From Tropicibacter sp. R16_0 (GTDB lineage: Bacteria > Pseudomonadota > Alphaproteobacteria > Rhodobacterales > Rhodobacteraceae), in the NCBI RefSeq assembly GCF_017743935.1, contig NZ_JAGHRE010000018.1, forward strand, positions 1 through 51,948: a DNA stretch of 51,948 nt, written 5' to 3'. Positions 2,931 to 49,290 of the stretch are shown piece after piece. The first letter of the stretch is position 1, and every line of letters starts with the position of its first letter. Position numbers and translations under genes: made by a program. A model generated the notes under the pieces. The model worked only from the letters and a program-made list of their open reading frames with translations, made no database searches and was not told the origin of the DNA.

Positions 2931-2934
2931 GCGC

Positions 2935-4275
2935 TTACTGCCCCATCAGAACCGGATCAAAGGGGTATTTGGTCAGGTTTTCATAACCGTCTTCGGTGAT
3001 GAGAACCTGATCCTCAAGCTTGATCGAGAAGGCCCCGCCAACGGCACCCACGCAGGCCTCGACACAGAGAACCATGCCAGGTTCCAGCGGATAGTCATAG
3101 GCCCCTTCGACGGCTGCGTCAGGGTAGGCGACCAACGGCCATTCATCGCACAGACCCACGCCATGCATCAGGCAGCCGTATTTCTGGGCCTGAAACTGGT
3201 CGTCCAGCACATGCGCATTTGCCGTGAGTTCAGGGATCATCACACCGGGTTTCAGCATCTCCATGTTGGTCATGATGTGCTCATGGGCGTGCTGCATGGC
3301 ATAGACCATTTCGGCCGGTGGTTTTTCGTCGCCAATCCACCAGCTGCGCGAAATGTCGATGCAGATGCCGTAAGAGCCCACGAGGTCGGTGTCGAACGAG
3401 ATGATCTCGTTCTGTTGCGTGATCCGCGGGCCGCATTCCTGGAACCAGGGGTTGGTGCGCTGACCCGACGCCAACAGGCGGGTTTCGATCCATTCGCCGC
3501 CACGGCGAATGTTTTCCGCATGCAACACGGCCCAGATGTCATCTTCGCTGGTCTTTCCGTCACCGACATTGGCGCGAGCAAAGTCCTCCATGGCGCGCAC
3601 CGATGTCTCGCAAGCGTGGTTGGCGCAGCGCATGGCCAGAATCTCGTCCGGGCCTTTGACGGCGCGGGCCTTTTCGGTGAGCTCTTCACCCTCCATGATC
3701 TCGAACCCCTGCGCCTCGAGCGCACGCAGGCCGTGCAGCATGATCTTGTCCACGGCCAGCCGCATGTTGCCGCCACCGTGTTCCTGGATCAGTTCGCGCA
3801 CCTCGTTCGACAGCTTGTCGGCGGCGACGTCGACCTTGTCGCCACGGTCGAAATAGAACAGATCCGCGCCGGATCGCTGTTCCCGAACAAGTGGGTTGAA
3901 GGTGCTCAGGAACGGCGATTGCTTGTAATCCCAGATCACCATGTAACCATCGGCACAAAGCAGCAGCGCGCGGAACGGGTTATGCGTGTTCCACAGCTGC
4001 ATGTTGGTGCTGTCGGTGGCATAGCGGATGTTGAGCGGATCAAACAGCAGCACGCCGCCATAGCCCCGGTCGACCACATGCTGGGTCAGCCGCTTCCAGC
4101 GGTGTTCGCGCATCCGCTCGAGGTTGGGTAGGATCAGCCCGGCGGCCTCCCACTCGGCAAAGGCCAATTGCGTCGGGCCGATCTCGACCCGGTCGTTGTC
4201 GTTGGGGGTTCCATCGCCCAGGGTCGTGCCCTTGTTGGGGTCGATCTTGCGTCGGTCTCGGTAATGCTGGTTCAC
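2935..4275 (-). CDS. dddP: dimethylsulfoniopropionate (DMSP) lyase DddP
   Basis: A 446-residue M24/creatinase-fold enzyme that cleaves DMSP to dimethyl sulfide and acrylate in the cytoplasm. The start is the GTG at 4275: it gives the family N-terminus MNQHY and has GGGAG 7 nt upstream. Counting from it, all six metal ligands known for DddP fall in place: D295, D297, D307, H371, E406 and E421, with the proposed catalytic base at D377. The length equals that of characterised DddP proteins, so the gene looks intact. It converges on the Hint gene with only 4 nt between the stop codons. No regulator gene (DddZ or similar) is adjacent. Confidence 0.97.
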   Translation of the reverse strand: MNQHYRDRRKIDPNKGTTLGDGTPNDNDRVEIGPTQLAFAEWEAAGLILPNLERMREHRWKRLTQHVVDRGYGGVLLFDPLNIRYATDSTNMQLWNTHNPFRALLLCADGYMVIWDYKQSPFLSTFNPLVREQRSGADLFYFDRGDKVDVAADKLSNEVRELIQEHGGGNMRLAVDKIMLHGLRALEAQGFEIMEGEELTEKARAVKGPDEILAMRCANHACETSVRAMEDFARANVGDGKTSEDDIWAVLHAENIRRGGEWIETRLLASGQRTNPWFQECGPRITQQNEIISFDTDLVGSYGICIDISRSWWIGDEKPPAEMVYAMQHAHEHIMTNMEMLKPGVMIPELTANAHVLDDQFQAQKYGCLMHGVGLCDEWPLVAYPDAAVEGAYDYPLEPGMVLCVEACVGAVGGAFSIKLEDQVLITEDGYENLTKYPFDPVLMGQ

Positions 4276-13812: not shown

Positions 13813-14775
13813 ATGGCCTCAATTACCAAGACACCCAAAGGATACAGGGCTTTTGTTGCCCGTAAAGGGATTCGCAAATCCAAAGTTCTGCCCACGAAAA
13901 AGGAGGCTCGCGATTGGGCGGCGCGGGCAGAGTACGAGATCCTGAACGGCGACAAGATCGCAGCCAAGATGAAGCTGTCCGAGCTGTTCGACAAGTACGC
14001 CAGAGAAGTAAGCCCCAAAAAGAGGGGCGCCAGGTGGGAGACACTAAGGCTGGAGAATTTTTGCCGGGACAGCCTGTCAAACGTTTCTCTCGACGCGCTT
14101 TCGCCCAACGATTTCGCTTCCTGGAGAGATCAGCGGTTGCGTGAAGTTGCGCCTGCGACAGTGGCGCGAGAAATGCAATTGATGTCATCTGTCCTCAATG
14201 TGGCTCGCAAGGAATGGGGATACATTGGGGTGAACCCCCTAAGCGACGTCGCCAAGCCTAAGAAGCCTCCGCCACGGGATCGCCTGCCGACAGAGGATGA
14301 AATTGAAAGGCTGCGGCACTGTGCTGGGGAGGATCTATCAAAGGCCACGACCCGAGCGTTCCATGCTTTCCTCTTCGCTCTGGCAACGGCTATGCGGGCC
14401 GGTGAAATAGCGGGTTTGGAATGGAATAGGGTCGATCTGGAGCGTCGTGTCGCAAAGCTCACTCACACCAAGAACGGACGCCCGCGAGAGGTTCCACTGT
14501 CGTCAGAGGCAGTGCGATTGTTACGAATGTTGCCCGAGCTTGATCCAGTTTTCGGGCTGTCCAGCAGACAATTGGATGTGCTGTTTAGGAAGTCTCGAGA
14601 CAAGGCACAAATCGAGGACTTACATTTCCACGATTCCCGACATGCTGCGATCACTGCGCTGGCAAAAAAGTTGGATGTTCTGGCGTTGGCTCGAATGGTG
14701 GGCCACTCTGATCTGCGGATGCTGCAGATCTACTACAACGAAAGTGCCGAGGATCTGGCAAAGCGATTAGACTAG
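13813..14775 (+). CDS. int: prophage tyrosine integrase
   Basis: A 320-residue tyrosine recombinase with the full catalytic set: R195 in TAMRAGEI, K220 in HTKNG, H273 and R276 in HFHDSRHAA, H298 in VGHSD, and nucleophile Y307. An N-terminal arm-binding segment (KTPKGYRAFVARKGIRK) and a core-binding domain precede the catalytic domain. It would carry out site-specific integration at the adjacent tRNA-Leu. The start lacks a visible ribosome site (TGTGTAATTC before the ATG), so weak or leaderless translation is possible. Confidence 0.95.
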   Translation: MASITKTPKGYRAFVARKGIRKSKVLPTKKEARDWAARAEYEILNGDKIAAKMKLSELFDKYAREVSPKKRGARWETLRLENFCRDSLSNVSLDALSPNDFASWRDQRLREVAPATVAREMQLMSSVLNVARKEWGYIGVNPLSDVAKPKKPPPRDRLPTEDEIERLRHCAGEDLSKATTRAFHAFLFALATAMRAGEIAGLEWNRVDLERRVAKLTHTKNGRPREVPLSSEAVRLLRMLPELDPVFGLSSRQLDVLFRKSRDKAQIEDLHFHDSRHAAITALAKKLDVLALARMVGHSDLRMLQIYYNESAEDLAKRLD

Positions 14776-15035: not shown

Positions 15036-18000
15036 CTACTTTTCAATTTCTGAGAGGTAGTTGTGCTTGAGCAGGTAAGCGTAGTCTTCCGCAGAAATCG
15101 AACCTCGCACAAGACTGTGCGCGTGGTTTATTGCAATATGATCCTTAATCGGATCGAGAAGACCTTTCGTGGTTGCGTCTCGTAGGAGCACCACCCATGT
15201 GCCGCTAGGTAAGCCCGGAAAATTTTGGAGGATGTTTCCGTGACAAAGGCATGAATAGAATAAATCAAGAAACACTAACCACTTTGACGTCAAGCGATCT
15301 TTGCCCTTTGAAATATTACCGAAAAGAATTGCACAAGCATCCTTTTCACTCTGGGAGGGGGTGCCATTACTAAGTAGGTTTTGGAAAACGGCCAAAGTTG
15401 ATTTTTCAAAGATGCTCACCAAGTTCGCTGGAATTGGATCGGCTAGCACCCGGCTAACTCGGCTCAATCGGAATATCGCATCTTCATGCTCTGCGTGGAC
15501 TCCAGCCCAAGCCATGATATGAGCGGCAATGTCCAGACGTAAATCTGAGCGCGACGATAGCGCTTTTGAAACGAATACAGCTGATTCGAGCCTCCAGTTC
15601 TCGAGAAACCATGCCTCACAGTGCGACTGGATTTCTTCGTAAGGAAGTTCGGCATCCAGCCAGGCTTTGTAGACGAAGTCTGCCTCCCGCGATTGACCGT
15701 GCTCTTCCACCCAGAGGTGAAGTTTTTCACGAACTGTCTCCACTTCGCCCTTGGCGCCCAGCCAGGCTTTGTAGACGTACGACGCCTCCAGCGATCGACC
15801 GTGCTCTTCCATCCAGAGGAGTAACTTTTCGCGGACTATCTCCGCTTCGCCATCGGCGTCCAACCAAGCGTTATAGACGCGCGATGCGTCCAGCGATCGA
15901 CCGTGCTCTTCCAACCAGAGGAGTAACTTTTCACGGACTGCCTTCACTTCTCCCGTGGCGTCCAACCAGGCTTTGTAGACGTACGACGCCTCCAGCAATT
16001 GACAGTGCTCTTCCACCCACAGCAGTAATTTTTCGCGGACTGCCTCAATTCCCCCTTTGGCGATTAGCCAAGCTTTGTAGACGTGCGACGCTGTCTGGGA
16101 TTGACCATGCACTTCCATCCAGAGGATCAACCCTTCACGGACTGTTTCCACTCCCCCATTGGCCTCTAGCCAAGCCCTGTATACGTGCGACGCTGTCGGT
16201 GATTGACCGTGCTCTTCCACCCAGAGGTGAAGTTTTTCTCGAACTGTCTCCACTTCGCCCTTGGCGTCCAGCCAGGCTTTGTAGACGTACGACGCCTCCA
16301 GCAATTGACCGTGCTCTGCCACCCACAGGAACAGTTTTTCACGAACAGCCTCTAAATCGCCCGTGGCGTCCAGCCAAGCCTTGTAGACGAACTGTGCATC
16401 AGGTGATTGACCATGCTCTTGCAGCCACAGGAGTAATTCTTCGCGAATTGCATCCTCTTCGCCTGCAGCGTCCAGCCAGGCATTGTAGACGAAGTCTGCC
16501 ACCGGCGATTGACCATGTTCTTCCACCCAGAGGAGCAGTTTTTCGCGAACAGCGTCCACTTCGCCCGTGGCGTCTAGCCAGGCTTTGTAGACATACTGTG
16601 CGTCATGCGATTGACCATGCCTTTCCAACCAGAGAAACATTTTTTCCCGGATTGTCTCCACTTCCCCCTTGGCGTCCAGCCAAGCTTTGTAGACGTGCGA
16701 TGCTTTTAATGCATTGTCGTTCTGTGCAATCCAGGGCACCAAATGCGGTAGAACGTCATCTGTCGGTGTTCCCAATGTCAACAGAGATACGATCAAGTAA
16801 TGAGTGTGGAGAGCCACCGGAGCTGCTTGAATTCGCTCAATGACATCGTCGTGAAATCGCTGGGGATCAAATGTATAGGCACAGCGCAAGACCATGTTGC
16901 TGTGGTGTCGAAGGGCAACTGCGCTTCCAAGAGGAGCGCTCAATGCCGAAACAGCCAAACTTCGGTCAATTTCGAATTGACCTTTCGTAGCCGCCCATTC
17001 AGCTGCAAGCGCAAGGGCGACATGGGTCTCTGGCGCTTCAGCTATTCGAATTCTCAGGACATTGGAGGATGCCAGTAAAGCTATTAATTCTGCGTGATTT
17101 AGTAAGCGGCTTTTTGTAAAACTAGGCAAAGCAGCAAGTGTTTTGCCACTATCATAGGCCATCAAGGCTTCAATCAAAGACTTGCCTGAAAGCCTCTCGA
17201 ACACAGGATGATCACCCAGTCGATCCAAAGCAGCCAAGCAACGGTCAAGCCGATCTTCTTTCAAAGCCGCAACTACGATGTCGTTGAGCCGATCTTGTTC
17301 AGTTCCAGGCATCGCGGACAAGTGGCGAGAGAGAATCGCGTCTGTAAGAATGTCATGTGCTGCTGAATATGTTTCTCCCTCAGATTCAATCCATCTGTCG
17401 GCTTTCAGAATGTCGAAAACATCGCGCTTCAAATCTGTACTAGCACGAAATAGGGCGGCCTCAGCTATCGACATCGGCATTTGCACAGCCAACTCAGCCA
17501 GTAGACTTTGAACAGGTTGCCCTGGAAATCGATCTTCTATCGCCTTTAGTCGATTGGAAGACCAACCAGTGAAATCCTTCACTGAAGCCAAATTTCCGAA
17601 TTGCAAGTCAAACTGCGTGCGATCCTTTTTGTATAGGAACCCTGCAAATGCTGCCATCACCGGCAGTCCTTTGCAGCTCTTTGCCACATGTTCGGCGTGT
17701 GGAATACAGAAATGACCGACGATCTTATCTACGAGCCAGTCAGTATATCCATCACGTTCCTTTTCCGGAAGAAGGCCCGTAGTTTCCGCTTGGAGGTCGC
17801 TTAGAAGATCCGTTACTTTTTGAAGGGAACTTGATCGGGTCGATGCTATGATCGCAACTTGATGCCCACCATCAGATACAAGTCTTGTTGCAGCTTCTGC
17901 CAGCCGATCAAGCCCCTCAAAGGCCTCCGCATAGTCGATGAAGAGAAGCAGTTTTGCAGCAGTGGCATGGCTTTGGCAAATTGAATCCAGTTCGACAACG

Positions 18001-18860
18001 CTTGCCTTTCGATCAAGGCGGATAGGCCACCACCCTAAATCTCGCGCTTTTTCGCACAGTTCAATCGAAAGGCGCGTCTTGCCAACCCCGCCTGGCCCAA
18101 ATATCACTTGTGCCTTAGCATCGTTTCCTTGTGACAAGAATTTTAGGATAGTGTCAAATTCCGAGGCAGATCTCAGCTTTGTTTCCATCAGATGGGAATC
18201 ACGAGAGAAATAGGGTAGATTTCGATTTGCCAAAAATTGTTTGAAACCCGTTTCGGCGCCGAAACTTGCAGAAATCTCACCATAGCCATGCGGGAAACCA
18301 CCAAACCAGCGGTAGAAAAGAGGCGCAAACATCGCGCTCTTTCCTGCGATGTCGTCCCAGTATCTTAAGTCCACTTCAACACTTTTGAGGTGGCTCAACT
18401 CGTCATGTTTATTGGATATATTGCTAAAAAAACCCGAAATTTCTGCGCGCAATTTGTTTCGCGCGTCTGCACTTGGACAGATTGAAGATGAGATAAACGT
18501 GTACGTCTTCAGGTCACCCTCAGATTTAAGCCAAGGCCTATACTTCTTGCGGCGGTTCTCATCCCCGCGAGCCAATCTAAGCAAGTTGTTGTCAAGATGG
18601 CGTTTCACCTCGCCCCAGCGCTCTTCAGCAGTCGACTTAGTTTCGGCTCCTATGAACTTACACTCAACAATGTGCTCTAACTTTTGGCCAGCATCGGTTA
18701 GGTCGATCGCGCCGTCGGCACCACGAGCAAGTCCCCGGACCAGCCTTTTCTCAGGTTCCTCCAAGCGAAGAAACTCATCAACAAATTGTTCGAACGCGGC
18801 ACCGTCATCCTCCCTGCTGACTATGCGATCATCGAAGCGCTTTCCAATGAAATCAGGCAT
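15036..18860 (-). CDS. STAND NTPase with N-terminal PD-(D/E)xK nuclease and 34-residue C-terminal repeats (Avs-like defence candidate)
   Basis: A 1274-residue protein. Residues 1-130 look like a Mrr-type restriction endonuclease domain: D53 in GADGAID, then E66-C67-K68 in VECKF. A P-loop NTPase follows with Walker A GPGGVGKT (255-262, K261) and Walker B LLLFIDYAEA (D309). Helical repeats cover the rest, including ten tandem 34-residue units at 732-1071. Nuclease, STAND ATPase and repeat sensor is the plan of Avs-type anti-phage proteins, where a phage protein binds the repeats and oligomerisation activates the nuclease. Its place between int and the excisionase-like gene, on the opposite strand, is typical of prophage defence cargo. 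No partner gene is adjacent. A possible promoter lies at 18891-18919. Confidence 0.8.
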   Translation of the reverse strand: MPDFIGKRFDDRIVSREDDGAAFEQFVDEFLRLEEPEKRLVRGLARGADGAIDLTDAGQKLEHIVECKFIGAETKSTAEERWGEVKRHLDNNLLRLARGDENRRKKYRPWLKSEGDLKTYTFISSSICPSADARNKLRAEISGFFSNISNKHDELSHLKSVEVDLRYWDDIAGKSAMFAPLFYRWFGGFPHGYGEISASFGAETGFKQFLANRNLPYFSRDSHLMETKLRSASEFDTILKFLSQGNDAKAQVIFGPGGVGKTRLSIELCEKARDLGWWPIRLDRKASVVELDSICQSHATAAKLLLFIDYAEAFEGLDRLAEAATRLVSDGGHQVAIIASTRSSSLQKVTDLLSDLQAETTGLLPEKERDGYTDWLVDKIVGHFCIPHAEHVAKSCKGLPVMAAFAGFLYKKDRTQFDLQFGNLASVKDFTGWSSNRLKAIEDRFPGQPVQSLLAELAVQMPMSIAEAALFRASTDLKRDVFDILKADRWIESEGETYSAAHDILTDAILSRHLSAMPGTEQDRLNDIVVAALKEDRLDRCLAALDRLGDHPVFERLSGKSLIEALMAYDSGKTLAALPSFTKSRLLNHAELIALLASSNVLRIRIAEAPETHVALALAAEWAATKGQFEIDRSLAVSALSAPLGSAVALRHHSNMVLRCAYTFDPQRFHDDVIERIQAAPVALHTHYLIVSLLTLGTPTDDVLPHLVPWIAQNDNALKASHVYKAWLDAKGEVETIREKMFLWLERHGQSHDAQYVYKAWLDATGEVDAVREKLLLWVEEHGQSPVADFVYNAWLDAAGEEDAIREELLLWLQEHGQSPDAQFVYKAWLDATGDLEAVREKLFLWVAEHGQLLEASYVYKAWLDAKGEVETVREKLHLWVEEHGQSPTASHVYRAWLEANGGVETVREGLILWMEVHGQSQTASHVYKAWLIAKGGIEAVREKLLLWVEEHCQLLEASYVYKAWLDATGEVKAVREKLLLWLEEHGRSLDASRVYNAWLDADGEAEIVREKLLLWMEEHGRSLEASYVYKAWLGAKGEVETVREKLHLWVEEHGQSREADFVYKAWLDAELPYEEIQSHCEAWFLENWRLESAVFVSKALSSRSDLRLDIAAHIMAWAGVHAEHEDAIFRLSRVSRVLADPIPANLVSIFEKSTLAVFQNLLSNGTPSQSEKDACAILFGNISKGKDRLTSKWLVFLDLFYSCLCHGNILQNFPGLPSGTWVVLLRDATTKGLLDPIKDHIAINHAHSLVRGSISAEDYAYLLKHNYLSEIEK
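15648..16667 (-). repeat. ten tandem 102-bp coding repeats
   Basis: Ten contiguous units of exactly 102 bp (34 codons) inside the STAND gene. The consensus begins GEVETVREKLLLWVEEHGQS, then xxASxVYKAWLDA plus one variable residue. Partial units flank both ends. Most changes between units fall at residues 3-6, 21-25 and 34, while VREKLxLW and VYxAWL are nearly fixed. TPR-like helical hairpins of 34 residues are likely. Confidence 0.95.
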
Positions 18861-19347: not shown

Positions 19348-19578
19348 CTAGGCGATGTCTGGGTTTTTGACCAATTTGCCATTGGTTTCGAGCTGCCCAT
19401 TCCTGATCCACCGACGAACTGTTGCGACTGAACGGTCAACGCGGCTCGCATAGTCCCGGACGGTAATCCAGCGAGGAGGCGGTGTAATCGACGCCTTGGT
19501 CAGAAGCCGCTCTACCTGATCCAGCTTCTTCATTACGGCTTCCACGTCAGCCTTGGTTGCGATTTGGTCTGGGGTCAT
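19348..19578 (-). CDS. helix-turn-helix protein, excisionase candidate
   Basis: A 76-residue protein starting at 19578, where ATGA overlaps the stop of the upstream methyltransferase-like gene. A short N-terminal coiled helix (VEAVMKKLDQVERLL) is followed by a MerR/excisionase-type HTH (WITVRDYASRVDRSVATVRRW, with the recognition helix at the end). The size, domain and position as the last gene of the leftward operon, facing int, fit a recombination directionality factor. A small transcription regulator is the alternative. Confidence 0.6.
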   Translation of the reverse strand: MTPDQIATKADVEAVMKKLDQVERLLTKASITPPPRWITVRDYASRVDRSVATVRRWIRNGQLETNGKLVKNPDIA

Positions 19579-20261
19579 GCGGCGGTCCTCGTAGCGTGGT
19601 TGGCCCATTGAGCGGCCGCGGCATCCATCATCCCGGGGAACGATCGGCTGCGCAGTCGGGCGCGCTCTGGTCCTGGGGGCATGCGGTGGACGCGGTTCCA
19701 GCGTTTCCATTCGTCTGAGCCGCGCGCAGGCTCTGGCAGGCGGTTCGTCTCCATCAGCTCGGGCAGGCCGCGCAGATACCAGCCGGTTTCCTTGTAAGCT
19801 GGTTCTCCGAACCAGAAGGGCTGCACCAATTGGGGCTTGGGAAGATCCGCCGGCATGCGGTCCTTGGCAAGGTCATTCATCACCGGGTTCTCGATGGCGA
19901 CACGCTCGATTGGAGCGTTCCAGCAGGTGGTGAAAATGTCGACGCCCAATTCGAACTCGGCCCGCAGGATCTCGACCGTCTTGCCCTTGGGGAGGCGCTT
20001 GGGCGGCGTCCACTTGCCGGGGCCGCTCATCCACTGCCGCCCGGATCTGCAAAGACGGGTGCAGGGCGGGTGCATCACCGCAAGCAAATCCCAGCCTTCG
20101 TGCAGGATACCGTCCCGAACATCACAGATGATATGGCGGTTCGATCCGTCCTCGGCTGGCGCCAGGTCACAGGATGTCGTGTCAAACCCGTGGGCCTCAA
20201 AAGCGCGGCGAGCGATGCCAGACGTTTCGCAGGCGACAAGAGCGCGAAGCGAACGGCTCAT
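19575..20261 (-). CDS. phage DNA (cytosine) methyltransferase-like protein
   Basis: A 228-residue protein. ACETSGIARRAFEAHGFD looks like the SAM-binding FxGxG-type start of a C5-methylase, then SCDLAP, then DLLAVMHPPCTRLCRSG, with a PPC motif comparable to the catalytic PCQ loop. IERVAIENPVM corresponds to the ENV motif. The target-recognition part is very short. Such compact proteins are frequent in phages and are usually annotated as DNA methylases. It could protect phage DNA from host restriction. It overlaps both neighbours by 4 nt. Confidence 0.55.
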   Translation of the reverse strand: MSRSLRALVACETSGIARRAFEAHGFDTTSCDLAPAEDGSNRHIICDVRDGILHEGWDLLAVMHPPCTRLCRSGRQWMSGPGKWTPPKRLPKGKTVEILRAEFELGVDIFTTCWNAPIERVAIENPVMNDLAKDRMPADLPKPQLVQPFWFGEPAYKETGWYLRGLPELMETNRLPEPARGSDEWKRWNRVHRMPPGPERARLRSRSFPGMMDAAAAQWANHATRTAA

Positions 20262-23889: not shown

Positions 23890-24533
23890 GCCATCACGCG
23901 ACGAGTTGGGCCATTCGGCAGCGGGGTTTGAAGCCTGCGACGAAGCTCGTCCTTTGGCAGCTTTGTGACCGGTACCATCCGGATCATGGCTGCTTTCCGT
24001 CTCAGGAAACCCTGGCAGATGATTGCGAGATGTCGCGGGCGTCGGTGAACCGGCATCTTGATGAGCTTGAACGCCTGGGTCTGATCCGCCGAATTCAGAG
24101 GTCCGAGAAGAAGACAAATCGCCAGAAATCCACCCTCTACATCCTCGGTTTTCAGCCTGAAATCCGGGTCGAGAATGCGGGTGAAGCTGAGGGCGAAGAA
24201 ACGCAAAAGCTGTGTCGCAAAATGAGACACGGAGCCGTGTCTCAAAAATCGCAAAAGCCGTGTCTCAAAAAACGCGAAAGCCGTGTCTCAAATTGCGACA
24301 CTAACCTTGTAAAGGAACCAGTAATAGAACGCGCGCGCGAACCGAAACCGTTTTTCACCGACGATGAACGGTTCGAAGCACGGCAGATTTCGGAACATTT
24401 GAGATTGGGGAAATCGGTTCGGTTCGAAGCGGTCGGGCGGCGGGTGTTGGAATGTTTGATTGCTGAGAATGGGCTGAGTGAGACGCAGACGGCGAAGTGC
24501 CAGGAATTGCTGAGGAAGGAGCAGGGGATATGA
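23886..24533 (+). CDS. winged-helix replication initiator candidate
   Basis: A 215-residue protein beginning MSHHATSWAIRQRGLKP at 23886, chosen for its 4-nt ATGA overlap. Residues 10-80 form an HTH_36-type winged helix (LVLWQLCDRYHPDHGCFPSQ, ETLADDCEMSRASVNRHLDE, LERLGLIRRI), as in many phage O-type and RepA-like initiators. The middle (about 105-140) is a Lys/Arg/Ser linker encoded by the 24210-24289 iterons. The C-terminal helical domain may contact the next gene's product. This mirrors lambda O, whose gene contains ori. Confidence 0.7.
   Translation: MSHHATSWAIRQRGLKPATKLVLWQLCDRYHPDHGCFPSQETLADDCEMSRASVNRHLDELERLGLIRRIQRSEKKTNRQKSTLYILGFQPEIRVENAGEAEGEETQKLCRKMRHGAVSQKSQKPCLKKRESRVSNCDTNLVKEPVIERAREPKPFFTDDERFEARQISEHLRLGKSVRFEAVGRRVLECLIAENGLSETQTAKCQELLRKEQGI
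24210..24289 (+). repeat. iterons, candidate phage replication origin
   Basis: CCGTGTCTC occurs at 24235, 24258 and 24281, an exact 23-bp period, each followed by CAAA or AAAA; 24258 and 24281 are preceded by CGCAAAAG or CGCGAAAG. A degenerate copy CTGTGTCGC is at 24210 and an inverted copy GAGACACGG at 24224-24232. As 23 is not a multiple of three, each copy is read in a different frame, so the repeat is kept at the DNA level. Confidence 0.7.
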
Positions 24534-26541: not shown

Positions 26542-26952
26542 TGATTTATTCCCGAGGTTTGCAGCCGAAAGATAGGTTTGAATGAAGCGTCGTTTTTCGG
26601 AAGCTTTGACAACAGGTTGCTCATCTGTCTAGGGAAATTGCAACTCTATACTTTCTGATGAGGGGAATGAAGGGCGCCTGGCGGCGAGTTTTTGTTGGAT
26701 AGTGTAACTTTCAAAAAAAAGAAGTTTAAGTATTCATCAACCTACGATGACGTTCGTAAGTTGTTGTTTTTGAAAGTTGCATACCTCTAATGAGGCCTGT
26801 TTTTTGAAGTCTGGCTGGACTCTCTTTACGTGTATAAGGATGATCGGAGGACTTGACACAAGCAGTTTGCTGTGGACTCGTATAGAAAAACTGGCTGGAA
26901 GACTTAACTTCTTTTCGCATCCATTAGTAATTTGTCAAAGACTGTTGGAACT
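26542..26952. other. AT-rich intergenic region between divergent cargo genes
   Basis: About 410 bp, clearly more AT-rich than the rest of the phage. It must hold the promoters of the HEPN-like gene and of the secreted protein gene. TTGACA (26853) and TATAGA (26881) are both present but 22 nt apart, too far for a normal promoter. No small gene is supported. Confidence 0.4.
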
Positions 26953-29112
26953 ATGAGATTTTGTACAATTTTTGCTTCACTTTTTCTTGTATTGCCTACT
27001 TTTAGTGCGGCCAATGTAACAGTTGATGCTGTCTGTCAAATTGTAGGATGCGAAGGGGACCAAACGCATCAAAGTGCAGTACAATCAGCTCTGACACCAT
27101 CCTACTACGTCGTAAACAGAGGTCATGTTGGTGTTTGCGATCGATTGAAAAAGGCGAACCGCCTCTACAGTTGCACTGATGAGCAAGAGACTAAACTCGG
27201 GTGCTTGATGGGCACTATGAATAGAGCAAAGCGGAAGAAATTTTGTTCAACCAACAGCGCACCTGGTGGTGATGTTGTGGTGGTTGGGCCAAATACATCT
27301 GCGGGCGCTGGTAAGACCGAACCATCTATCGAAGAGACAACGAACGCAACACCATTGTCGGGTGCTGGATACGTTCGAGTAAGGTATGCGTTCGTCAATT
27401 CCAACACGGGTCGCAGGATTGATCGATTCCGAGCGCCTGAATGGGAATCTCTTTCCAAACGCGGTCTGGGAAATTGGTTGCGATACCTCCTTGCGGAACA
27501 TGAACGAGATGCAGCCTTGTTTCTACGGATCTATGAGGAAAACAAAGCCGTCATCGACCATCCGGTCTTTTTCTGGTCTAGGAATGATGAGTTCAAGACA
27601 ACAGCGCAGGATTTCAAGATAGACTACAATGGGTACCTTGGTGGGTATCAGAAGGCCAATGAAACCGTTACTTTTGGGATAGTGGTGAAAGCAACAAGCG
27701 CGACGCAAACTCGCACAGAAGAAGTTGCAAATCTGATAAGTACCCTCAATGCCATCAGGGCGGGCCAACTGAGCAAGTTCAAATTGAATGACAAAACTGC
27801 CTCTGAGGACGATGGGGTCAAGGTCGAGGACGTTAACAGCGTTGTAGACTATGAAGCTTTCCGAAAGCACTACGAAGACATCGACGCAAGGTTGGGGAGC
27901 TTCAAGAGCGAATATGATCTCGATAAAAGATGGACCCTGTCGCGCAGCAATTCTTTCCACTACAGTGAAGTCTTGTTCAACTTTGACGAGATGCAATCTC
28001 AAACAGGGCTGCCCCCGCTTGCTATCAAAATTGAACTTGAGTACGTGGAATCCCTTTTGAAAGACGAAAGTGTGGGTAATGTACCGAACACTAAGATTTA
28101 TGTTGGCGGTACATCGGTAAACTCGATGAACCAGTTCATCCGCACGGATCCAAAGACGGAGAATGAGTGGAACAACCTGGGCGCGTCTCCAGAGAACCTT
28201 AGCAGAGCGTGCAAAGAGGCCAATACAGTTCTAAAGGCCCAACTTCAACCGGTCGATCAATTCATCGCGATCTCCAGCTTATTGCATGAGCGTGCTACCG
28301 AAGTCAAAAGGATCGGCTGGACCAAAGAGATTGAAGCCAGTTGTTTTGCGCCTGCTGACTTGCTCTCAGTGAAGAATGATTTCTCTGACGTATATGCAAA
28401 GTACAGCTTTCCTCTTACGATAGCGAAGCCTTCAGATCTGCCCTTGTACACGGCCAAAGATAGAACCCTGGGTAACAAAAAGTACAAAAACTCCAAGGCG
28501 AAGAAGGAGGACGTTGTAGAGTACGTAAACTCCCTCCTGAAGCAATCAGCTCAGGGACAACTCAACATCCAGAACGAGCTATTGGCTAATGCGTTGATAA
28601 CCGCAGTAGATGAACATCTGTTCGCCGGGCAGGCGGGCAGTTTCGAGATTTGTGATCGAAATAGCGCAATTCGTAAGCGCAGTTTCTTTGATGGAGTATG
28701 TGAGAAGTATACATCCAGTGAGTTTTTGAGGCTATTGCAACGTGAACCGGTTGCGTTGGGAAATGACAAGAAAGGGGAGCTGGTTGGGACTGGTTGCTAT
28801 TTCCATTTCAGGCCTCAGGTTATTGGGGCACAGGCAAGCGGCTTCAGTGACGGTAAAGGTAACGTCGCAACGCCGAATAGAATAGTTTCGCTGGCATACT
28901 TGAAAGGCGAACTAACCCAAATTGACTGGGTGTTCCAAAACTACAAGGGCGATCCGGTACTTGCGAAAGCTACGTTTACACCTGCGGGTCCGGATGAAGA
29001 GATGTTCTTCAAAAACAATAAGGGCGCTGGATGTGGAGACAACTTTGAGCGCATTATCTATGCGCGAAACAATGGTTCTGATCAAGTTGTGGCTGACGCT
29101 GGTTCACAGTAA
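26953..29112 (+). CDS. large secreted protein of unknown function (cargo)
   Basis: A 719-residue protein. The ATG at 26953 is chosen as it leads into a signal peptide (MRFCTIFASLFLVLPTFSAA); a TTG 21 nt earlier is in frame. A Cys-rich N-terminal module follows (residues about 30-105, at least six Cys), then a Gly/Thr linker, then a long, mostly helical and acidic middle. A C-terminal region has two more Cys pairs (around FEICDRNSA...VCEKY and GCYFHF...GAGCGDNFE). Disulfides imply a periplasmic or outer location. No known family was recognised. The gene is AT-richer than the phage and lies between terminators of early and late operons. Confidence 0.75.
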   Translation: MRFCTIFASLFLVLPTFSAANVTVDAVCQIVGCEGDQTHQSAVQSALTPSYYVVNRGHVGVCDRLKKANRLYSCTDEQETKLGCLMGTMNRAKRKKFCSTNSAPGGDVVVVGPNTSAGAGKTEPSIEETTNATPLSGAGYVRVRYAFVNSNTGRRIDRFRAPEWESLSKRGLGNWLRYLLAEHERDAALFLRIYEENKAVIDHPVFFWSRNDEFKTTAQDFKIDYNGYLGGYQKANETVTFGIVVKATSATQTRTEEVANLISTLNAIRAGQLSKFKLNDKTASEDDGVKVEDVNSVVDYEAFRKHYEDIDARLGSFKSEYDLDKRWTLSRSNSFHYSEVLFNFDEMQSQTGLPPLAIKIELEYVESLLKDESVGNVPNTKIYVGGTSVNSMNQFIRTDPKTENEWNNLGASPENLSRACKEANTVLKAQLQPVDQFIAISSLLHERATEVKRIGWTKEIEASCFAPADLLSVKNDFSDVYAKYSFPLTIAKPSDLPLYTAKDRTLGNKKYKNSKAKKEDVVEYVNSLLKQSAQGQLNIQNELLANALITAVDEHLFAGQAGSFEICDRNSAIRKRSFFDGVCEKYTSSEFLRLLQREPVALGNDKKGELVGTGCYFHFRPQVIGAQASGFSDGKGNVATPNRIVSLAYLKGELTQIDWVFQNYKGDPVLAKATFTPAGPDEEMFFKNNKGAGCGDNFERIIYARNNGSDQVVADAGSQ

Positions 29113-29787: not shown

Positions 29788-30237
29788 ATGCCTGATCTGA
29801 ACAGTCTCGAGCAGTTGATTGCCCTCTTGGGTGGTTGGCCTGAACACTTTGGCGCTGAAGAGGAAAAACACGCGTTGGCGATGTTGACCGCAACAAAGCG
29901 CGAGAAAGTGATCGATGAGCCGGTTTTCCGACTGGTCTGTCTATGGGGGCTGCATATGGCGGCGCATGATCGCCTGTCGCGCAAAATTGACGAGGCCGAC
30001 TTCACCGCGACCAAGGACAAATACCTGTCCGGCGACGAACAGCGCCGGGCGTTTCACGAAAACAAGATCATGGGTCTGCAGCGTGAGCTGCTGGCGACAC
30101 CCTATGCGCGTTCCAAGAATGGCAATGGGGCGCAAACCAGCTTCCTGGACGATTTGTTGGGAGGTGCCGACACCCAGCCGAAAGGCAACGTCACGCCGTT
30201 TCAGACCTTCCAGCGTAGAGGTCGCGGCGGTCAATGA
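29788..30237 (+). CDS. terminase small subunit
   Basis: A 149-residue protein preceded by a G-rich ribosome site and overlapping TerL by 4 nt. It is largely helical, with a run like KREKVIDEPVFRLVCLWGLH and the C-terminal tail GNVTPFQTFQRRGRGG. The position and size fit the DNA-recognising subunit of the packaging motor. The sequence family is only loosely P27-like. Confidence 0.75.
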   Translation: MPDLNSLEQLIALLGGWPEHFGAEEEKHALAMLTATKREKVIDEPVFRLVCLWGLHMAAHDRLSRKIDEADFTATKDKYLSGDEQRRAFHENKIMGLQRELLATPYARSKNGNGAQTSFLDDLLGGADTQPKGNVTPFQTFQRRGRGGQ

Positions 30238-32033
30238 GCGCGGCGGCAGCAGTGCAGGTCGAGACACCGATTGTGGATCGCGCGCTCGATTGGGTCGAGG
30301 ACGTTCTGTCGAACAAACAGCCAAGCTGCAAACGGGTAAAGCAGGCTTGCAAGCGGTTCCGGGCCGATCTGAAACGCGCATGCACAGACCAGTTTCCTCA
30401 TGTCTTCGACTTGGAGGCGGCGGAACACATGTGCGCCTTCATGGAGGCGCTGCCGCACATCGAAGGCGCTTGGGCGGCGCGCGGTGAAACCATCACTCTG
30501 CTGGGGTGGCAGGCGTTTCTGATCAGCCAGATCGGCGGTTGGCGTCACATGGTCACCGGCGTTCGCCGGTTCCGTACCGCCTATGTCGAGGTGCCACGAA
30601 AGAACGGCAAATCAACCTTGCTGGCTGGCGTTGGCCTCTATTTCCTGACGGTGGATGGTGAGCCGGGCGCCAAGGTTTATTCCGCAGCCGCTTCGACCCA
30701 TCAGGCGCGGATTGTCTTTGATGCGGCGCGCGTCATGGCCCTGTCGGGTCAGGTTGGTGGCATGGCCTTGGACGAGGTTCTCGGGCTGCAAGTCGAAGAA
30801 CACAAGATCAAGACCGGAGATCCTGCGGCGCTGTTCCAGGCGGTCGCCAGCCAGACAAAGTCGAAGGATGGCAAGAACCCGCATTGCGCCATTGTCGATG
30901 AATTGCATGAGCACGAAAAACGCGACGTGTGGGATTCAATGGCCAGCGCCCTGGGGGCCCGCGAACAGCCGCTGCTGATTGCGATCACCACGGCAGGCTA
31001 TAACACGGCGGGGATCTGCTATGAGCAGCGTAAGTATCTGCAGCGAATTCTGGATGGCACGTTCGAGGATGACAGCTATTTCGGACTGATCTTCGAAGCC
31101 GATGAAGGTGATGACCCGAGCGATCCGATCGCCTGGGAAAAAGCCAACCCGTCCCTGCATGCGGCCAAATCGCTGCAATACATGCAGGACGAATGGAAGA
31201 AAGCAGCGGCCAGCCCGGCGGCGATGGGTGAGTTCCTACGCAAGCATTTGGACATCTGGACCAGCGTGGGTGCGTCCGCCATCGACATGGAAGGATGGCG
31301 CGCTGGTGAAGACACGTCGCTCAGGATCGAAGATTTTGCCGGGCGGCGCTGTTACATCGGCGTTGACCTGGCGACCCGCCATGACCCGTCAAGCGTGGTG
31401 GTGGTTTTTCCAGACGAAAGTGACCCGGCAAAGGGGCCGATGACCGCCTTCAGTTGGCATTGTCTGCCGCAGAAAGTGGTGGACGCGGCTGGCAATGACC
31501 ACCTTTGGGGGTGGGCCAGCAAGGGCTTGATCACGACAACGCCCGGCGCGGAACTGGATCTGCGGTTGGTCGAAGCGCTGGTGATGCAGCTCTGTGGTCA
31601 TGGTGCGGACCATGATCCGCGCAACGAATGGGGCTGGGGCGATCTGCCCGCATTCGACGTGGAAATGGTGGTCTATGACGCGCAGTTTGCACAACAGATG
31701 GCGGCGACCTGGGATGCGGCCGGAATTTTGGCGGTGGAACTGCGCAAGCGCGCGGCAAACACAAATGAGCCGTTCAATAAGCTGATTGCTGCGGTGGATG
31801 ATCACAGGTTTCTGCACGATGGCAATCAGGTGCTGACCTGGATGGCGGGCAACACGCTGCTCAAGCAGGTGCCAGGCGGCGACTACATATTTCCGGCCAA
31901 GCTGGCACCAGAAGACAAGATCGACGGCATTGATGCTGCGATCAACGCGATTTGGCCGCTGTGTCAGGCAGAGGAAGACGATGACAGCAAAGAGCGTCGC
32001 AGCAGCTTCTTTGCATCGCTAGGAGCAACTTGA
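30234..32033 (+). CDS. terminase large subunit (Terminase_1)
   Basis: A 599-residue packaging motor. Walker A is PRKNGKST (121-128) and Walker B is CAIVDELHEH with D222-E223. The nuclease domain begins with YIGVDLATRHDPSSVV and has the later acidic blocks MVVYDAQFA and AVDDHRF. The length is standard for HK97-type TerL. It pumps DNA into the prohead and cuts it. Confidence 0.95.
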   Translation: MSAAAAVQVETPIVDRALDWVEDVLSNKQPSCKRVKQACKRFRADLKRACTDQFPHVFDLEAAEHMCAFMEALPHIEGAWAARGETITLLGWQAFLISQIGGWRHMVTGVRRFRTAYVEVPRKNGKSTLLAGVGLYFLTVDGEPGAKVYSAAASTHQARIVFDAARVMALSGQVGGMALDEVLGLQVEEHKIKTGDPAALFQAVASQTKSKDGKNPHCAIVDELHEHEKRDVWDSMASALGAREQPLLIAITTAGYNTAGICYEQRKYLQRILDGTFEDDSYFGLIFEADEGDDPSDPIAWEKANPSLHAAKSLQYMQDEWKKAAASPAAMGEFLRKHLDIWTSVGASAIDMEGWRAGEDTSLRIEDFAGRRCYIGVDLATRHDPSSVVVVFPDESDPAKGPMTAFSWHCLPQKVVDAAGNDHLWGWASKGLITTTPGAELDLRLVEALVMQLCGHGADHDPRNEWGWGDLPAFDVEMVVYDAQFAQQMAATWDAAGILAVELRKRAANTNEPFNKLIAAVDDHRFLHDGNQVLTWMAGNTLLKQVPGGDYIFPAKLAPEDKIDGIDAAINAIWPLCQAEEDDDSKERRSSFFASLGAT

Positions 32034-33238
32034 TGGGAATTTTGCACAAGGCGCTGGCTGCATTTGGTCTGCAGGTGAAATCGTCTGACTCGGTAAAATG
32101 GACGGACAGGCGCGGCCATTCGGACGTGTCGGTCGAGCGCGTCACGCCACGATCCAGCATGGGGCTTTCAGCAGTCTGGGCCTGCTCGAACCTGATCAGT
32201 GGTACCTTGTCGTCGCTGCCGTTTGAAATTGTACAGCGGGATGACGCGGGATTTCCGAAAGTGGCGGGCGCGCATCCGCTTCACAAGGTGATCTATGAGA
32301 GCCCGAACTTCGATCAGACAGCACTGGATTTCTGGGATTTCATGAACCTTTCGCTTGAGTTGCGGGGCAACTGCTATGCGGATGTGTCGCGGGACAGTCG
32401 CGGCGTGATCAAAGCGCTTTATCCGATTCAACCGGATGCAGTCTCTGTGCGGCGTCTGAATAATGGCCGGATCGAGTATCGCTGGACCAGCGAGGGAAAA
32501 GCGTTCACCCGGTTGGATCGCGACGTGTTTCATGTGCGCGGTCCGGGTGGCAATGCACTTGGGGGAATGTCCACACTGCAATTTGGCAGCCGAACGTTTA
32601 CGGCAGCGCTGGCCGCAGAGCAGGCCGCGGCCAGCACCTTTGAAAATGGGATGCGTCCTGGTGGGGTGCTCACCTTCACCGACTGGCTGAGTGAAACTGA
32701 GCGTGCAGTCGTTGATGGCATTGCGGAGAAGTACATTGGTGCCGCGAACAGCGGTAAGCCCTTCATTGCTGAGGGCGGCATGGAATTCTCGCCGATCAGT
32801 GTTTCGCCCGAAGATGCACAGATGCTGGAAACCCGGCAGTTTTCAGTCGAAGAGATTTGCCGGTTCTTTCAGGTGCCACCGGCCTTGATTGGTCATGCCG
32901 GTTCATCAACTGCCTGGCCAACCAGCGTTGACCAGCAAGTTCTGATGTTCACCAAGTTCTATCTGCGGAGGCGCGTGAAGCGGATTGAACAGGCCGTGCG
33001 CAAGCAGCTTCTCACGCCACAGGATCGGGCAGCGGGGTTCTCGGCGCGTATCAACATGGACGGGCTGTTGCGCGGAGATCCCGCCAGCAGGGCGGCGTAC
33101 TATCAGATCATGAGCCAGATCGGTGGCCTGACCATCAATGAGGTTCGGGCTTTGGAGAACCAGCCTCCGGTCGAGGGCGGCGATGTGGTGCGCATGCAGA
33201 TGCAGAATATTCCGATCAATGAAACAGGAGAAGCGTGA
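32033..33238 (+). CDS. HK97-family portal protein
   Basis: A 401-residue protein starting at the ATG at 32033 (one-base overlap with the TerL stop). SAVWACSNLISGTLSSLPF, FELRGNCYADVSRD-type and VPPALIGHAGSSTAW blocks are typical of gp3-type portals. The dodecameric ring joins head and tail and is the DNA channel. Confidence 0.93.
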   Translation: MGILHKALAAFGLQVKSSDSVKWTDRRGHSDVSVERVTPRSSMGLSAVWACSNLISGTLSSLPFEIVQRDDAGFPKVAGAHPLHKVIYESPNFDQTALDFWDFMNLSLELRGNCYADVSRDSRGVIKALYPIQPDAVSVRRLNNGRIEYRWTSEGKAFTRLDRDVFHVRGPGGNALGGMSTLQFGSRTFTAALAAEQAAASTFENGMRPGGVLTFTDWLSETERAVVDGIAEKYIGAANSGKPFIAEGGMEFSPISVSPEDAQMLETRQFSVEEICRFFQVPPALIGHAGSSTAWPTSVDQQVLMFTKFYLRRRVKRIEQAVRKQLLTPQDRAAGFSARINMDGLLRGDPASRAAYYQIMSQIGGLTINEVRALENQPPVEGGDVVRMQMQNIPINETGEA

Positions 33239-33897
33239 TGACGTTGGAGACCAAGGAAATGGCTGTCGATCTGAAAAGCGTTTCAGAGAACGGTGCAATC
33301 GAAGGCTATGCCAGCCTGTTCGGGGAAGTGGATGGCGGCGGTGATATGGTCGCCAGCGGGGCGTACAAGGCGAGCCTTGCGAAATTGGCCTCTGACGAGC
33401 GGAAAGTGAAAATGCTGTGGCAGCATGATCCGGGAAAGCCAATTGGTGTTTGGGAAGAGGTTCGCGAGGACGACAAGGGCCTGTGGGTTAAGGGGCGCAT
33501 TCTGAGCGAAGTCACCAAGGGGCGCGAAGCGATTGCCCTGATCAAGGCGGGATCGGTGGATGGTCTTTCGATTGGGTACCGGACGATAAAGGCCCACAAA
33601 GAAGACAATGGCGTCCGGGTGTTGACCGAGCTGGACCTGTGGGAGGTTTCGCTGGTGACGTTCCCGATGCTGACGAGCGCGCGTGTGTCGGCCAAGACGG
33701 ACGTGCCGGAAGAGGTGTTGAACAAGCTCAAGGCCGGGGATCGGCTGACTGAGCGGGAGTTCGGTAAACTGGTCAAGGGAGTTGGCCTTTCGAACTCACA
33801 GGCGGAGCGTGCCGCGCGTGTCCACTTGAAAGGGCAGGGGGATCCTGCCGATGCGGAGACTGAGGCGGTGGCGTTCTTCACTGCTCTCAACGGGTGA
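33238..33897 (+). CDS. HK97-family prohead protease (S78)
   Basis: A 219-residue protein starting at 33238 (TGATG overlap). IEGYASLFGEVDGGGD, MLWQHDPGKPIG (active His), GSVDGLSIGYR (active Ser) and the strand LWEVSLVTFPM are the family blocks. It matures the capsid by removing the delta domain. The C-terminal extension after residue 160 is charged. Confidence 0.93.
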   Translation: MTLETKEMAVDLKSVSENGAIEGYASLFGEVDGGGDMVASGAYKASLAKLASDERKVKMLWQHDPGKPIGVWEEVREDDKGLWVKGRILSEVTKGREAIALIKAGSVDGLSIGYRTIKAHKEDNGVRVLTELDLWEVSLVTFPMLTSARVSAKTDVPEEVLNKLKAGDRLTEREFGKLVKGVGLSNSQAERAARVHLKGQGDPADAETEAVAFFTALNG

Positions 33898-33935
33898 AAA
33901 ACCCTCCAATCTGAACAGAAATCAGGAGAGATCCC

Positions 33936-35135
33936 ATGTCGGGTGAAACGAAATCGGCTGCCGAGCTGGCAGCGGAAACCAAAGCTGCGTTCGACAAGCA
34001 GTTCGACAAGCTGAAAGAGATCGCAGAGGATGCGGTTGGCAAGGCTGAGGCTGGCGAGAAACTGAGCCAGACGGCGAAGGATGACGCGGACGAGGCGTTG
34101 ACCGGAATGAATGATGTCAAAGCCAAGCTGGAAGAGCTGGAGCAGAAGCTGGATCGCGGCGGCGATGATGGCGCGGATCAGCAAAAGTCGGTTGGTGCGC
34201 AGTTTGTCGAATGCGACGAATTCAAAACCTTTCAGGACAATCCGCGCAAGGGCGACAGTGCCTCCCTGGAAGTCAAGGCGGACCTGACCACCACAACCGG
34301 AGGCGCGGGTGGACTTGGCGCTGCTGTGCATTCAACACATCTGCCAGGCATTCAGCCGCTGCCACAGCGCCGGATGACGATCCGTGGCCTTCTGATGCCT
34401 GGTCAGACCGATAGTTCGCTGATCGACTATGACCGCGAGACCGGGTTTGCGAACAACGCCGACATGGTGGCCGAGGGCGGTTTGAAACCGCAATCCGACT
34501 TCTCCATCGAAGAAGTGCAGACCCGCACCAAAGTAATCGCGCATTGGATGCGTACCTCGAAACAGACCCTGTCCGATGTGGCTCAGATCCGGTCCATCAT
34601 CGACAATCGCCTGCTCTATGGATTGGCATTCAAAGAAGAGCTGCAGTTGCTCTTTGGCGACGGGACCGGCGAAAACCTGAACGGTATTGTTCCGCAGGCC
34701 ACTGCCTATGCGGCTCCGGCTGGTTTCCCGGCAGGCACATCCATTGATCAGATCCGCTATATGGCGCTTCAAGCGGTTCTGGCCGAGTATCCCGCTACGG
34801 GCATTGTTCTGCACCCAACCGATTGGGCGTTTATTGAAACCCTGAAAGACAGCGAAGGCCGCTACATCATCGGCAATCCGCAGGGAAGTCTTGCACCTAC
34901 GCTTTGGGGCCTGCCTGTTGTGGCCACGCCTGCAATGATCGTGGACAAGGTGCTGGTAGGTGCGTTCGACATGGGGGCTCAGATTTTCGACCAGTGGGCT
35001 TCCCGCATCGAGACCGGTTTCCAGAATGATGACTTCACCCGGAACAAGGTGACCATCCTCGCGGAAGAGCGATTGGCGCTGGCTGTTTATCGTCCTGAGA
35101 CCTTCATCTACGGCGATTTTGACCGCGTGGCCTGA
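33936..35135 (+). CDS. major capsid protein (HK97 gp5 type)
   Basis: A 399-residue protein. Residues 1-100 are a helical, charged scaffold (delta) domain. The mature part has GGLKPQSDFSIEEVQTRTKV, IDNRLLYGLAFKEELQLLFG, then PTDWAFIETLKDSEGRYI and GLPVVATPAM, all standard capsid-fold blocks. A stem-loop follows at 35160. Confidence 0.95.
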   Translation: MSGETKSAAELAAETKAAFDKQFDKLKEIAEDAVGKAEAGEKLSQTAKDDADEALTGMNDVKAKLEELEQKLDRGGDDGADQQKSVGAQFVECDEFKTFQDNPRKGDSASLEVKADLTTTTGGAGGLGAAVHSTHLPGIQPLPQRRMTIRGLLMPGQTDSSLIDYDRETGFANNADMVAEGGLKPQSDFSIEEVQTRTKVIAHWMRTSKQTLSDVAQIRSIIDNRLLYGLAFKEELQLLFGDGTGENLNGIVPQATAYAAPAGFPAGTSIDQIRYMALQAVLAEYPATGIVLHPTDWAFIETLKDSEGRYIIGNPQGSLAPTLWGLPVVATPAMIVDKVLVGAFDMGAQIFDQWASRIETGFQNDDFTRNKVTILAEERLALAVYRPETFIYGDFDRVA

Positions 35136-47994: not shown

Positions 47995-48039
47995 GTGTGA
48001 CCTCTCTCTTCGATTATGTCGAGCGCTTAGAGGTCACAC
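47995..48039. repeat. 11-bp inverted repeat at the end of the lysis module
   Basis: GTGTGACCTCT (47995-48005) and AGAGGTCACAC (48029-48039) are perfect complements separated by 23 bp. It lies between the phage lysis genes and the leftward cargo gene. No T-tract follows on either strand. Confidence 0.6.
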
Positions 48040-48074
48040 CCCTGTGCTATTGTGGCTTGCGGTTCTAGTGGCTT

Positions 48075-48737: not shown

Positions 48738-48890
48738 AGTACTTCCCCTGCTAATAACACTGGCGGGGGCAGCGGTGCTACCAACACCGCCACCGTGCAG
48801 CCATAGTTTCAATCAAGCTGCACCGACATGACACCAGATAATGTCGCCCGACTCTCGCGAGAGCGGTAGACTGATATTCTGGAATCAACC

Positions 48891-49275: not shown

Positions 49276-49290
49276 GCGGTCACTTGGCTT

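What the first reader, a model, noticed from the sequence alone, without database searches (positions are those of the whole stretch)
15036..18860. Prophage-borne STAND NTPase with nuclease head and ten near-identical 34-residue repeats
The sequence shows D53...E66-C67-K68 (PD-(D/E)xK), Walker A K261, Walker B D309 and ten contiguous 34-residue units. Known Avs/AVAST proteins share the nuclease-STAND-repeat plan and detect phage proteins such as portal or terminase. The near-identity and exact 102-bp length of the units here suggest copy number and identity can change by recombination, with variation concentrated at repeat positions 3-6, 21-25 and 34. That would be a way to alter recognition. 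It sits next to int in a prophage, so it may guard against competing phages. This is the best candidate in the window for an undescribed system.
Basis: partly seen in the sequence, partly recalled or inferred. Interest (0 to 1): 0.85.

Follow-up and report, generated by a model that had tools for sequence, protein, structure and literature searches.

The report
Prophage nuclease sensor with reshuffling repeats
A virus sleeping in a bacterial chromosome carries a gene built like bacterial immune alarm proteins (a DNA-cutting head, an energy-driven switch and a repeated arm that probably does the sensing), and in its relatives the arm has been repeatedly rebuilt by recombination, as is known for some fungal immune receptors.

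Summary
The gene is real: 1274 residues with an Mrr-like PD-(D/E)xK head, a STAND NTPase and ten in-register 34-residue helical repeats, on the minus strand between int and a Cox-like xis candidate in a prophage. The named catalytic and Walker residues are invariant in 10 of 10 aligned sequences (window and nine relatives). Foldseek ranks Avs4 bound to portal first, with SAMD9, Avs3 and Avs5 close behind, but Avs sequence models match weakly or not at all: it looks like Avs and is not shown to be Avs. 'Near-identical' is too strong for this copy (units 53-91% identical, mean 68), though close to true of two relatives (96%, 87%). Main new result: each repeat's closest relative lies in its own protein (41 of 41; shuffles at most 17), also at silent codons (40 of 41), without positional orthology; copy numbers are 10, 9, 8 and 5. 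The arrays evolve in concert, as in fungal hnwd receptors. Unit sequences do not diverge faster than the core, so speed is unknown. Variation favours one face of helix A, but positive selection is not shown. A resemblance to TAL-effector repeats is not established. No function has been tested.

The parts
15036..18860 (-). the whole gene, 1274 aa
   Evidence: relatives L002-L007
18261..18860 (-). Mrr-like PD-(D/E)xK nuclease head, about aa 1-200; D53 to K68 at 18657-18704
   Evidence: D53, E66, C67, K68 invariant in 10 of 10 aligned sequences; Pfam Mrr_cat matches 3 of 6 heads scanned (E 0.0015, 0.05, 0.2), all below the curated cut-off; the window's own head matches nothing; strand 63-68 of the model carries E66-K68, the stretch before it is of low confidence
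17316..18188 (-). STAND NTPase, about aa 225-515: Walker A with K261, Walker B with D309
   Evidence: nSTAND_NTPase5, AAA_16, nSTAND3 and others below the curated cut-off for the window protein; motifs invariant; fold
16704..17315 (-). helical connector, about aa 516-719
   Evidence: model
15684..16703 (-). probable sensor array: ten units of 34 aa (102 bp), aa 720-1059
   Evidence: in unit 1 of the model helix A = positions 1-10, helix B = 17-29
15036..15683 (-). C-terminal cap, aa 1060-1274 and stop; shared with L002, L004, L006
13587..13671 (+). tRNA-Leu beside the integrase (possible attachment site, by position only; no second copy of it found in the window)
13813..14775 (+). integrase of the prophage
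   Evidence: phrog_1 E 4.8e-62
19348..19710 (-). Cox/MerR-like excisionase candidate on the other side of the gene
   Evidence: phrog_575 E 2.7e-6
30234..35135 (+). terminase large subunit (30234-32033), portal (32030-33238) and major head protein (33936-35135)

Best explanation
It is a one-gene bacterial NLR-like (STAND) alarm carried as cargo by a temperate phage. At rest the helical repeat arm holds the NTPase off. When the arm binds a foreign protein (most likely one of a competing phage), ATP-driven oligomerisation brings the N-terminal Mrr-like nuclease heads together; they cut DNA and stop the infection or kill the cell. The arm is built of 34-residue two-helix units that are duplicated, lost and homogenised within each gene, so that arm length and the exposed face of helix A (positions 2, 3, 6, 10) differ between relatives while the order and motifs of head and switch are kept. 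Shown by sequence: domain order, invariant motifs, fold resemblance to Avs proteins, concerted evolution of the arrays, copy-number differences between relatives, one-sided variability. Inferred: defence, a protein ligand, oligomerisation, DNA cleavage, and that array turnover changes specificity. Not known: how fast the arrays turn over.
For: Invariant nuclease and Walker residues in 10 of 10 aligned sequences; Mrr_cat similarity in 3 of 6 heads; core model mean pLDDT 83 and Foldseek hits Avs4-portal 4.7e-9, SAMD9 2.7e-8, Avs3-terminase 2.7e-8, Avs5 9.3e-8; two-helix solenoid arm. The array begins at aa 720 in 7 of 7 (window and six close relatives) and holds 10, 9, 8 and 5 units in the four followed without a break in frame to the cap. 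Nearest unit in own array 41 of 41, shuffles mean 6.7, maximum 17; same-index units of different arrays no more alike (0.650) than different-index units (0.643), within arrays 0.791. Same-codon fraction within arrays 0.64-0.98 against 0.30-0.43 expected from own codon usage; 8 of 8 arrays above every one of 300 simulations. The four distant relatives found by the core in which I saw a nuclease head (L024, L025, L026, L031) all carry tandem arrays, of 34-aa units (L024) and periods of 114, 102 and 111 bp. Variability moment on helix A 0.47, 602 of 20000 permutations as large; non-silent to silent ratio higher at positions 2, 3, 6, 10 than elsewhere, Fisher p 8e-7, positions chosen after the fact. 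The gene lies in unlike settings: prophage, beside repC, among chromosomal genes.
Against: No test of function. PADLOC: nothing significant for the window protein (best E 0.0092); among the ten cores Avs4 matches 3 at best E 0.0013 and the candidate model PDC-S73 matches 2 at best 1.8e-5; where located these are P-loop stretches. No codon with a significant excess of non-silent change; omega 0.58 pooled and 0.43 in the window array, the lowest of eight. Units of different arrays are more alike than the cores in 6 of 15 pairs by DNA and in 13 of 15 by silent codons, so the arrays do not diverge faster than the core. TM-scores of the Avs matches are low (0.16-0.22 by query) with large rmsd. Ten flanking frames of six relatives (Pfam only) show no known defence gene.
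Confidence: 0.7

Rival explanations
1. Same immune protein, but array turnover is neutral: tandem DNA slips and converts, the arm tolerates many lengths, and recognition rests on the cap or on invariant residues.
For: No codon under significant positive selection, pooled omega 0.58; unit sequences do not diverge faster than the core; the cap is shared by L002, L004 and L006; tandem repeats slip anyway (general knowledge).
Against: In the homogenised array L003 the residual variation lies at positions 2, 3, 6, 10, 17, 33 and 34, in L005 at 2 and 29; the non-silent to silent ratio is higher at 2, 3, 6, 10; the distant relative L024 lacks most of the cap yet keeps the array.
Confidence: 0.3
2. 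A non-immune STAND regulator of the prophage or host, controlling lysis, excision or transcription, with the nuclease head regulatory.
For: Lies beside int and a xis candidate. A bacterial CARD-NLR-like system that controls gene transfer agents is in print (PMC13236601, search listing and start of abstract only).
Against: Nuclease residues invariant in 10 of 10; relatives also occur away from prophage genes among the flanking frames scanned; no DNA-binding domain among the Pfam matches.
Confidence: 0.1
3. The array reads nucleic acid, one unit per base, like TAL-effector repeats.
For: Same unit length; the array matches TAL-effector repeats in the PDB at 6.1e-19; 178 of 183 plasmid records hit by tblastn are Xanthomonas, whereas the one decoy tried there hit none of them.
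Against: One of three column-permuted decoys matched TAL repeats in the PDB at 2.1e-7 (not 67, 69), so such E-values are inflated by the shared period; unit 4 alone finds none at E up to 10; Pfam lists no TAL-effector model for the protein at E up to 1 (that Pfam has one is recalled); no TAL structure among the 50 rows listed of 793 for the arm; arrays are net acidic in 8 of 8 (-6 to -26).
Confidence: 0.04

Closest known systems
Avs4 and Avs3 (AVAST, antiviral STAND)
   Same: N-terminal nuclease, central STAND NTPase, C-terminal sensor (plan: PMC12931631, passages); among the best PDB fold matches of the core
   Different: No significant match of the window protein to their sequence models; arm of 34-residue units that evolve in concert; trigger unknown
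Mrr_cat-STAND-repeat proteins of the P4-like satellite hotspot (PMC9122126, passages)
   Same: Mrr-type nuclease, STAND, C-terminal repeats, beside int of a phage element
   Different: Different element and host; no sequence comparison made here; concerted evolution not mentioned in the passages seen
Podospora hnwd (het-d, het-e, het-r) NLRs with highly conserved WD repeats (PMC2873952, PMC4986451, PMC12222747, passages)
   Same: STAND receptor whose sensor repeats are alike within a gene and evolve in concert; copy-number change
   Different: Fungal; WD40 repeats, not helical units; positive selection and changed recognition are reported there, not shown here
STAND sensors diversified by retroelements in Thiohalocapsa (PMC10907252, passages)
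   Same: Bacterial STAND proteins with a route to sensor diversity
   Different: Targeted hypermutation of C-type lectin folds, not recombination of tandem helical units
TAL-effector repeats
   Same: 34-residue units in register
   Different: Array here is acidic; match partly reproduced by a decoy; homology not shown

Membership tests
STAND NTPases / bacterial NLR-like proteins | P-loop with Walker A and Walker B in an effector-NTPase-repeat order | tested here: met
   G255-x-G-G-x-G-K261 and D309-Y310-x-E312 in 10 of 10; AAA_16 and nSTAND3 in 7 of 7 members at E up to 0.1; fold search
STAND NTPases / bacterial NLR-like proteins | Match to a curated STAND family above its cut-off | tested here: not met
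   window protein: nSTAND_NTPase5 18.7 bits against 34; the others also below
Mrr-like PD-(D/E)xK nucleases | D-x(n)-(E/Q)-x-K motif (recalled) in the head | tested here: met
   D53 and E66-C-K68 invariant in 10 of 10
Mrr-like PD-(D/E)xK nucleases | Match to Pfam Mrr_cat above cut-off | tested here: inconclusive
   3 of 6 heads match below cut-off (best 19.1 against 21 bits); the window's own head not at all
Avs (AVAST) | Nuclease (types 1-4)-STAND-repeat plan and fold | tested here: met
   Foldseek; plan from PMC12931631 passages
Avs (AVAST) | Significant match to an Avs sequence model or solved Avs sequence | tested here: not met
   PADLOC: Avs4 in 3 of 10 cores, best 0.0013, not the window's; no Avs chain in PDB sequence searches at E up to 1 and 10
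Avs (AVAST) | Triggered by a phage protein such as portal or terminase; protects from phage | not testable with these tools
   needs an experiment
NLRs with highly internally conserved repeats | Units more alike within than between genes, also at silent sites | tested here: met
NLRs with highly internally conserved repeats | Positive selection at interface positions | tested here: inconclusive
   higher ratio at positions 2, 3, 6, 10 but no codon significant
TAL-effector-type repeats | Sequence match beyond what the shared period gives | tested here: inconclusive

The most novel reading that the evidence does not exclude
A family of nuclease-STAND alarms scattered through the proteobacteria renews its phage-sensing arm by recombination: whole 34- to 38-residue helical units are gained, lost and homogenised, with change focused on one face of helix A, so that what is recognised can shift. 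That would be a bacterial counterpart of the fungal hnwd receptors.
Probability: 0.3. Interest if true: 0.8.

Novelty: new variant of a known kind. Interest (0 to 1): 0.55.

Why it matters
How bacteria renew the specificity of inherited immune sensors is open. Here head and switch keep their motifs while the repeat array is rebuilt gene by gene, in a single gene that can be moved to a laboratory strain. It allows a direct test of whether repeat recombination changes recognition, and offers a bacterial parallel to fungal non-self receptors.

Tried and rejected
TAL-like DNA reading: considered because of a striking E-value, set aside after decoys, a single-unit test, charge and fold search. Positive selection per codon: none significant. 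Second attachment copy: none in the window (exact matches of 14 bases or more); a search of the own genome with tRNA-Leu and its flank gave three weaker matches on other contigs, not examined, and the contig ends at the window's last base. Phage records: no match at the limits used. Plasmid records: for the core only one Streptomyces NTPase stretch, E 2e-4; five Streptomyces records hit by the array were not looked at. Three further viral-contig scans with distant relatives or the array gave nothing new. Strain-level comparison of unit number was not possible: the only near copy found is a viral-contig record with 100% identity, probably this same prophage. Promoter scan: uninformative. Weak NTPase-only genome matches L011, L017-L020 and L028 were not examined for a nuclease head.
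Full report
What is there. The frame at 15036-18860 (-) encodes 1274 residues, and a search of the own genome with the protein found this one place. Pfam gives only weak NTPase matches for the window protein (nSTAND_NTPase5 E 0.0016, NB-ARC 0.0038, nSTAND3 0.014) besides chance-like matches in the repeats. PADLOC models give nothing significant for it.

Relatives. A scan of genome contigs gave six loci: Devosia L002 (a run of N lies in one unit), a Rhodospirillum MAG L004 and an Oceanicaulis MAG L006 run through the array to the cap; Rhizobium L005 is broken by N in the array; the contigs of Paenihalocynthiibacter L003 and Pleomorphomonas L007 end inside the array. Core residues 1-720 align at 59-72% identity to the window protein. 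Searches of genome sets, own genome counted: family, 5 of 394 with any match at 0.001 by the whole protein, of which 2 are full-length (own and G298, which is the L003 record by length and place); order, 2 of 292 at 1e-10, the same two; class, 8 of 385 at 0.001, with a full core in own and G427 (2e-187) and NTPase stretches in the rest, G443 among them; phylum, own and G1051 of 398 at 1e-8; relatives of G1051, G1051 and G993 of 120 at 1e-10; relatives of G427, G427, G443 and G652 of 143 at 1e-10. The family is sparse. In viral contigs only one record, 100% identical, was found; in phage records none.

Head and switch. In an alignment of ten cores, the window and nine relatives down to 24% identity, D53, E66, C67, K68, the G-x-G-G-x-G-K loop with K261 and D309-Y310-x-E312 are invariant. 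Mrr_cat matches 3 of 6 heads scanned, all below the curated cut-off and not the window's own. AlphaFold2 on that alignment gave mean pLDDT 83 and pTM 0.58; residues 42-46 and their surroundings are of low confidence. Foldseek against the PDB ranked Avs4 with portal first (4.7e-9), then human SAMD9, Avs3 with terminase and Avs5, followed by plant and human NLRs; TM-scores are low. Sequence searches of the PDB found no Avs chain. It resembles Avs in plan and fold; membership by sequence is not met.

The arm. Ten units of exactly 34 residues start at aa 720; in unit 1 of the model helix A covers positions 1-10 and helix B 17-29 (pLDDT 76, pTM 0.45). Fold search of the arm lists importins, HEAT/ARM-like and other solenoids, only three below 0.001. 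The array starts at aa 720 in 7 of 7 (window and six close relatives); the number of units before the cap is 10 (window), 9 (L002), 8 (L004) and 5 (L006). Units of the window copy are 53-91% identical (mean 68); within L005 the mean is 96% (4 units), within L003 87% (5 units), within L004 only 56% (8 units).

Concerted evolution. I took 41 units from six arrays (window 10, L002 9, L003 5, L004 8, L005 4, L006 5; left out: the single complete unit of L007, L005 units after the gap, and the distant arrays). For 41 of 41 the closest unit by DNA lies in the same array; label shuffles gave a mean of 6.7 and a maximum of 17. Units at the same index in different arrays are no more alike (0.650) than at different indices (0.643), against 0.791 within arrays. 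At silent sites, same-codon fractions within arrays are 0.64-0.98, above all 300 simulations from the gene's own codon usage in 8 of 8 arrays, and 40 of 41 units have their closest relative by silent codons at home. Protein constraint or codon bias does not explain this; duplication and conversion within arrays do. Against a picture of fast change: units of different arrays are more alike than the cores in 6 of 15 pairs by DNA and in 13 of 15 by silent codons, so the rate of turnover is not shown to be high. The four distant relatives found by the core in which I saw a nuclease head (L024, L025, L026, L031) all carry arrays: 34-aa units in L024 and periods of 114, 102 and 111 bp.

Where units vary. 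Mean entropy over eight arrays (L002's N-bearing unit and L024's last two units left out) is highest at positions 2, 6, 10, 3 and 33. On helix A the variable positions share one side (moment 0.47; 602 of 20000 permutations reach it), on helix B they do not (7514 of 20000). Parsimony counts give 96 non-silent to 20 silent changes at positions 2, 3, 6 and 10 against 254 to 178 elsewhere. These positions were picked after looking at variability, so the Fisher value is descriptive. No codon is significant alone; omega is 0.58 pooled and 0.43 in the window array. Diversifying selection is possible, not shown.

Setting. The gene lies between int (13813-14775) and a Cox-like excisionase candidate (19348-19710), with terminase, portal and head genes further on. 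The viral-contig record that matches it starts at int and is 38,136 bp, which takes it to the contig's last base (contig length 51948). Of 15 viral contigs with a related integrase, the other 14 were not returned as carriers of this gene. Ten int-adjacent frames from nine of them gave two DNA methylases, DUF5131, a PEP-CTERM protein, one weak helix-turn-helix and five without a Pfam match. Of the relatives, ten flanking frames from six loci were scanned with Pfam: mostly metabolic or transport proteins, repC beside L004, one DUF4942, one without a match. GC3 of the gene in L002-L007 is 0.57-0.65, mostly below its neighbours. This fits a mobile cargo gene. PMC9122126 (passages) reports STAND-repeat proteins with Mrr_cat heads in an int-adjacent hotspot.

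Known parallels. Concerted evolution of sensor repeats, with positive selection at four positions per unit, is reported for Podospora hnwd receptors, and spontaneous mutants with altered recognition mostly have rearranged arrays (PMC2873952, PMC4986451, passages). High internal identity is also reported for prokaryotic WD40 proteins (PMC5587647, passages). My searches showed no paper on concerted repeat evolution in bacterial STAND proteins; the library holds only open-licence papers, so this is weak.

TAL-like resemblance. The array alone matches TAL-effector repeats in the PDB at 6.1e-19. Of three decoys made by permuting columns equally in all units, one matched TAL repeats at 2.1e-7 and two did not. 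With tblastn on plasmids the same decoy found no Xanthomonas record, while the true array found 178 of 183. Unit 4 alone finds none. Ten units against ten units repeat one weak comparison ten times, so homology is neither shown nor excluded.

Verdict. Observation largely right, near-identity overstated. Best reading: a prophage-borne, single-gene, Avs-like nuclease alarm whose repeat array evolves in concert; new variant of a known kind.

Noticed in passing
L010 (G248:C71), 2873-3217: Another STAND protein, from a genome of the same bacterial family, ends in near-identical TPR-like units (105 bp, 92% matches), so similar arms may occur in other bacterial STAND proteins.
   Followed up: partly
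window 26932-29112 (+): A 726-residue frame in a low-GC stretch (0.46-0.48) of the prophage with no Pfam match at 0.01 and no PHROG match at 0.001.
   Followed up: no
window 24199-24292: Short tandem array, 23-bp unit, 4 copies.
   Followed up: no
window 48001-51000: Low-GC end of the prophage with a frame matching D12-class adenine methylase in part (48891-49424) and a 396-residue frame (49291-50481, -) with only a sub-threshold membrane-protein match.
   Followed up: no
L042-L054, just beyond int: The int-adjacent slot of related prophages holds unlike genes, among them two DNA methylases; a few frames have GC3 below 0.4.
   Followed up: partly
window 15566-16843 (+): A 425-residue frame open opposite the array, probably a by-product of the 102-bp period.
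   Followed up: no
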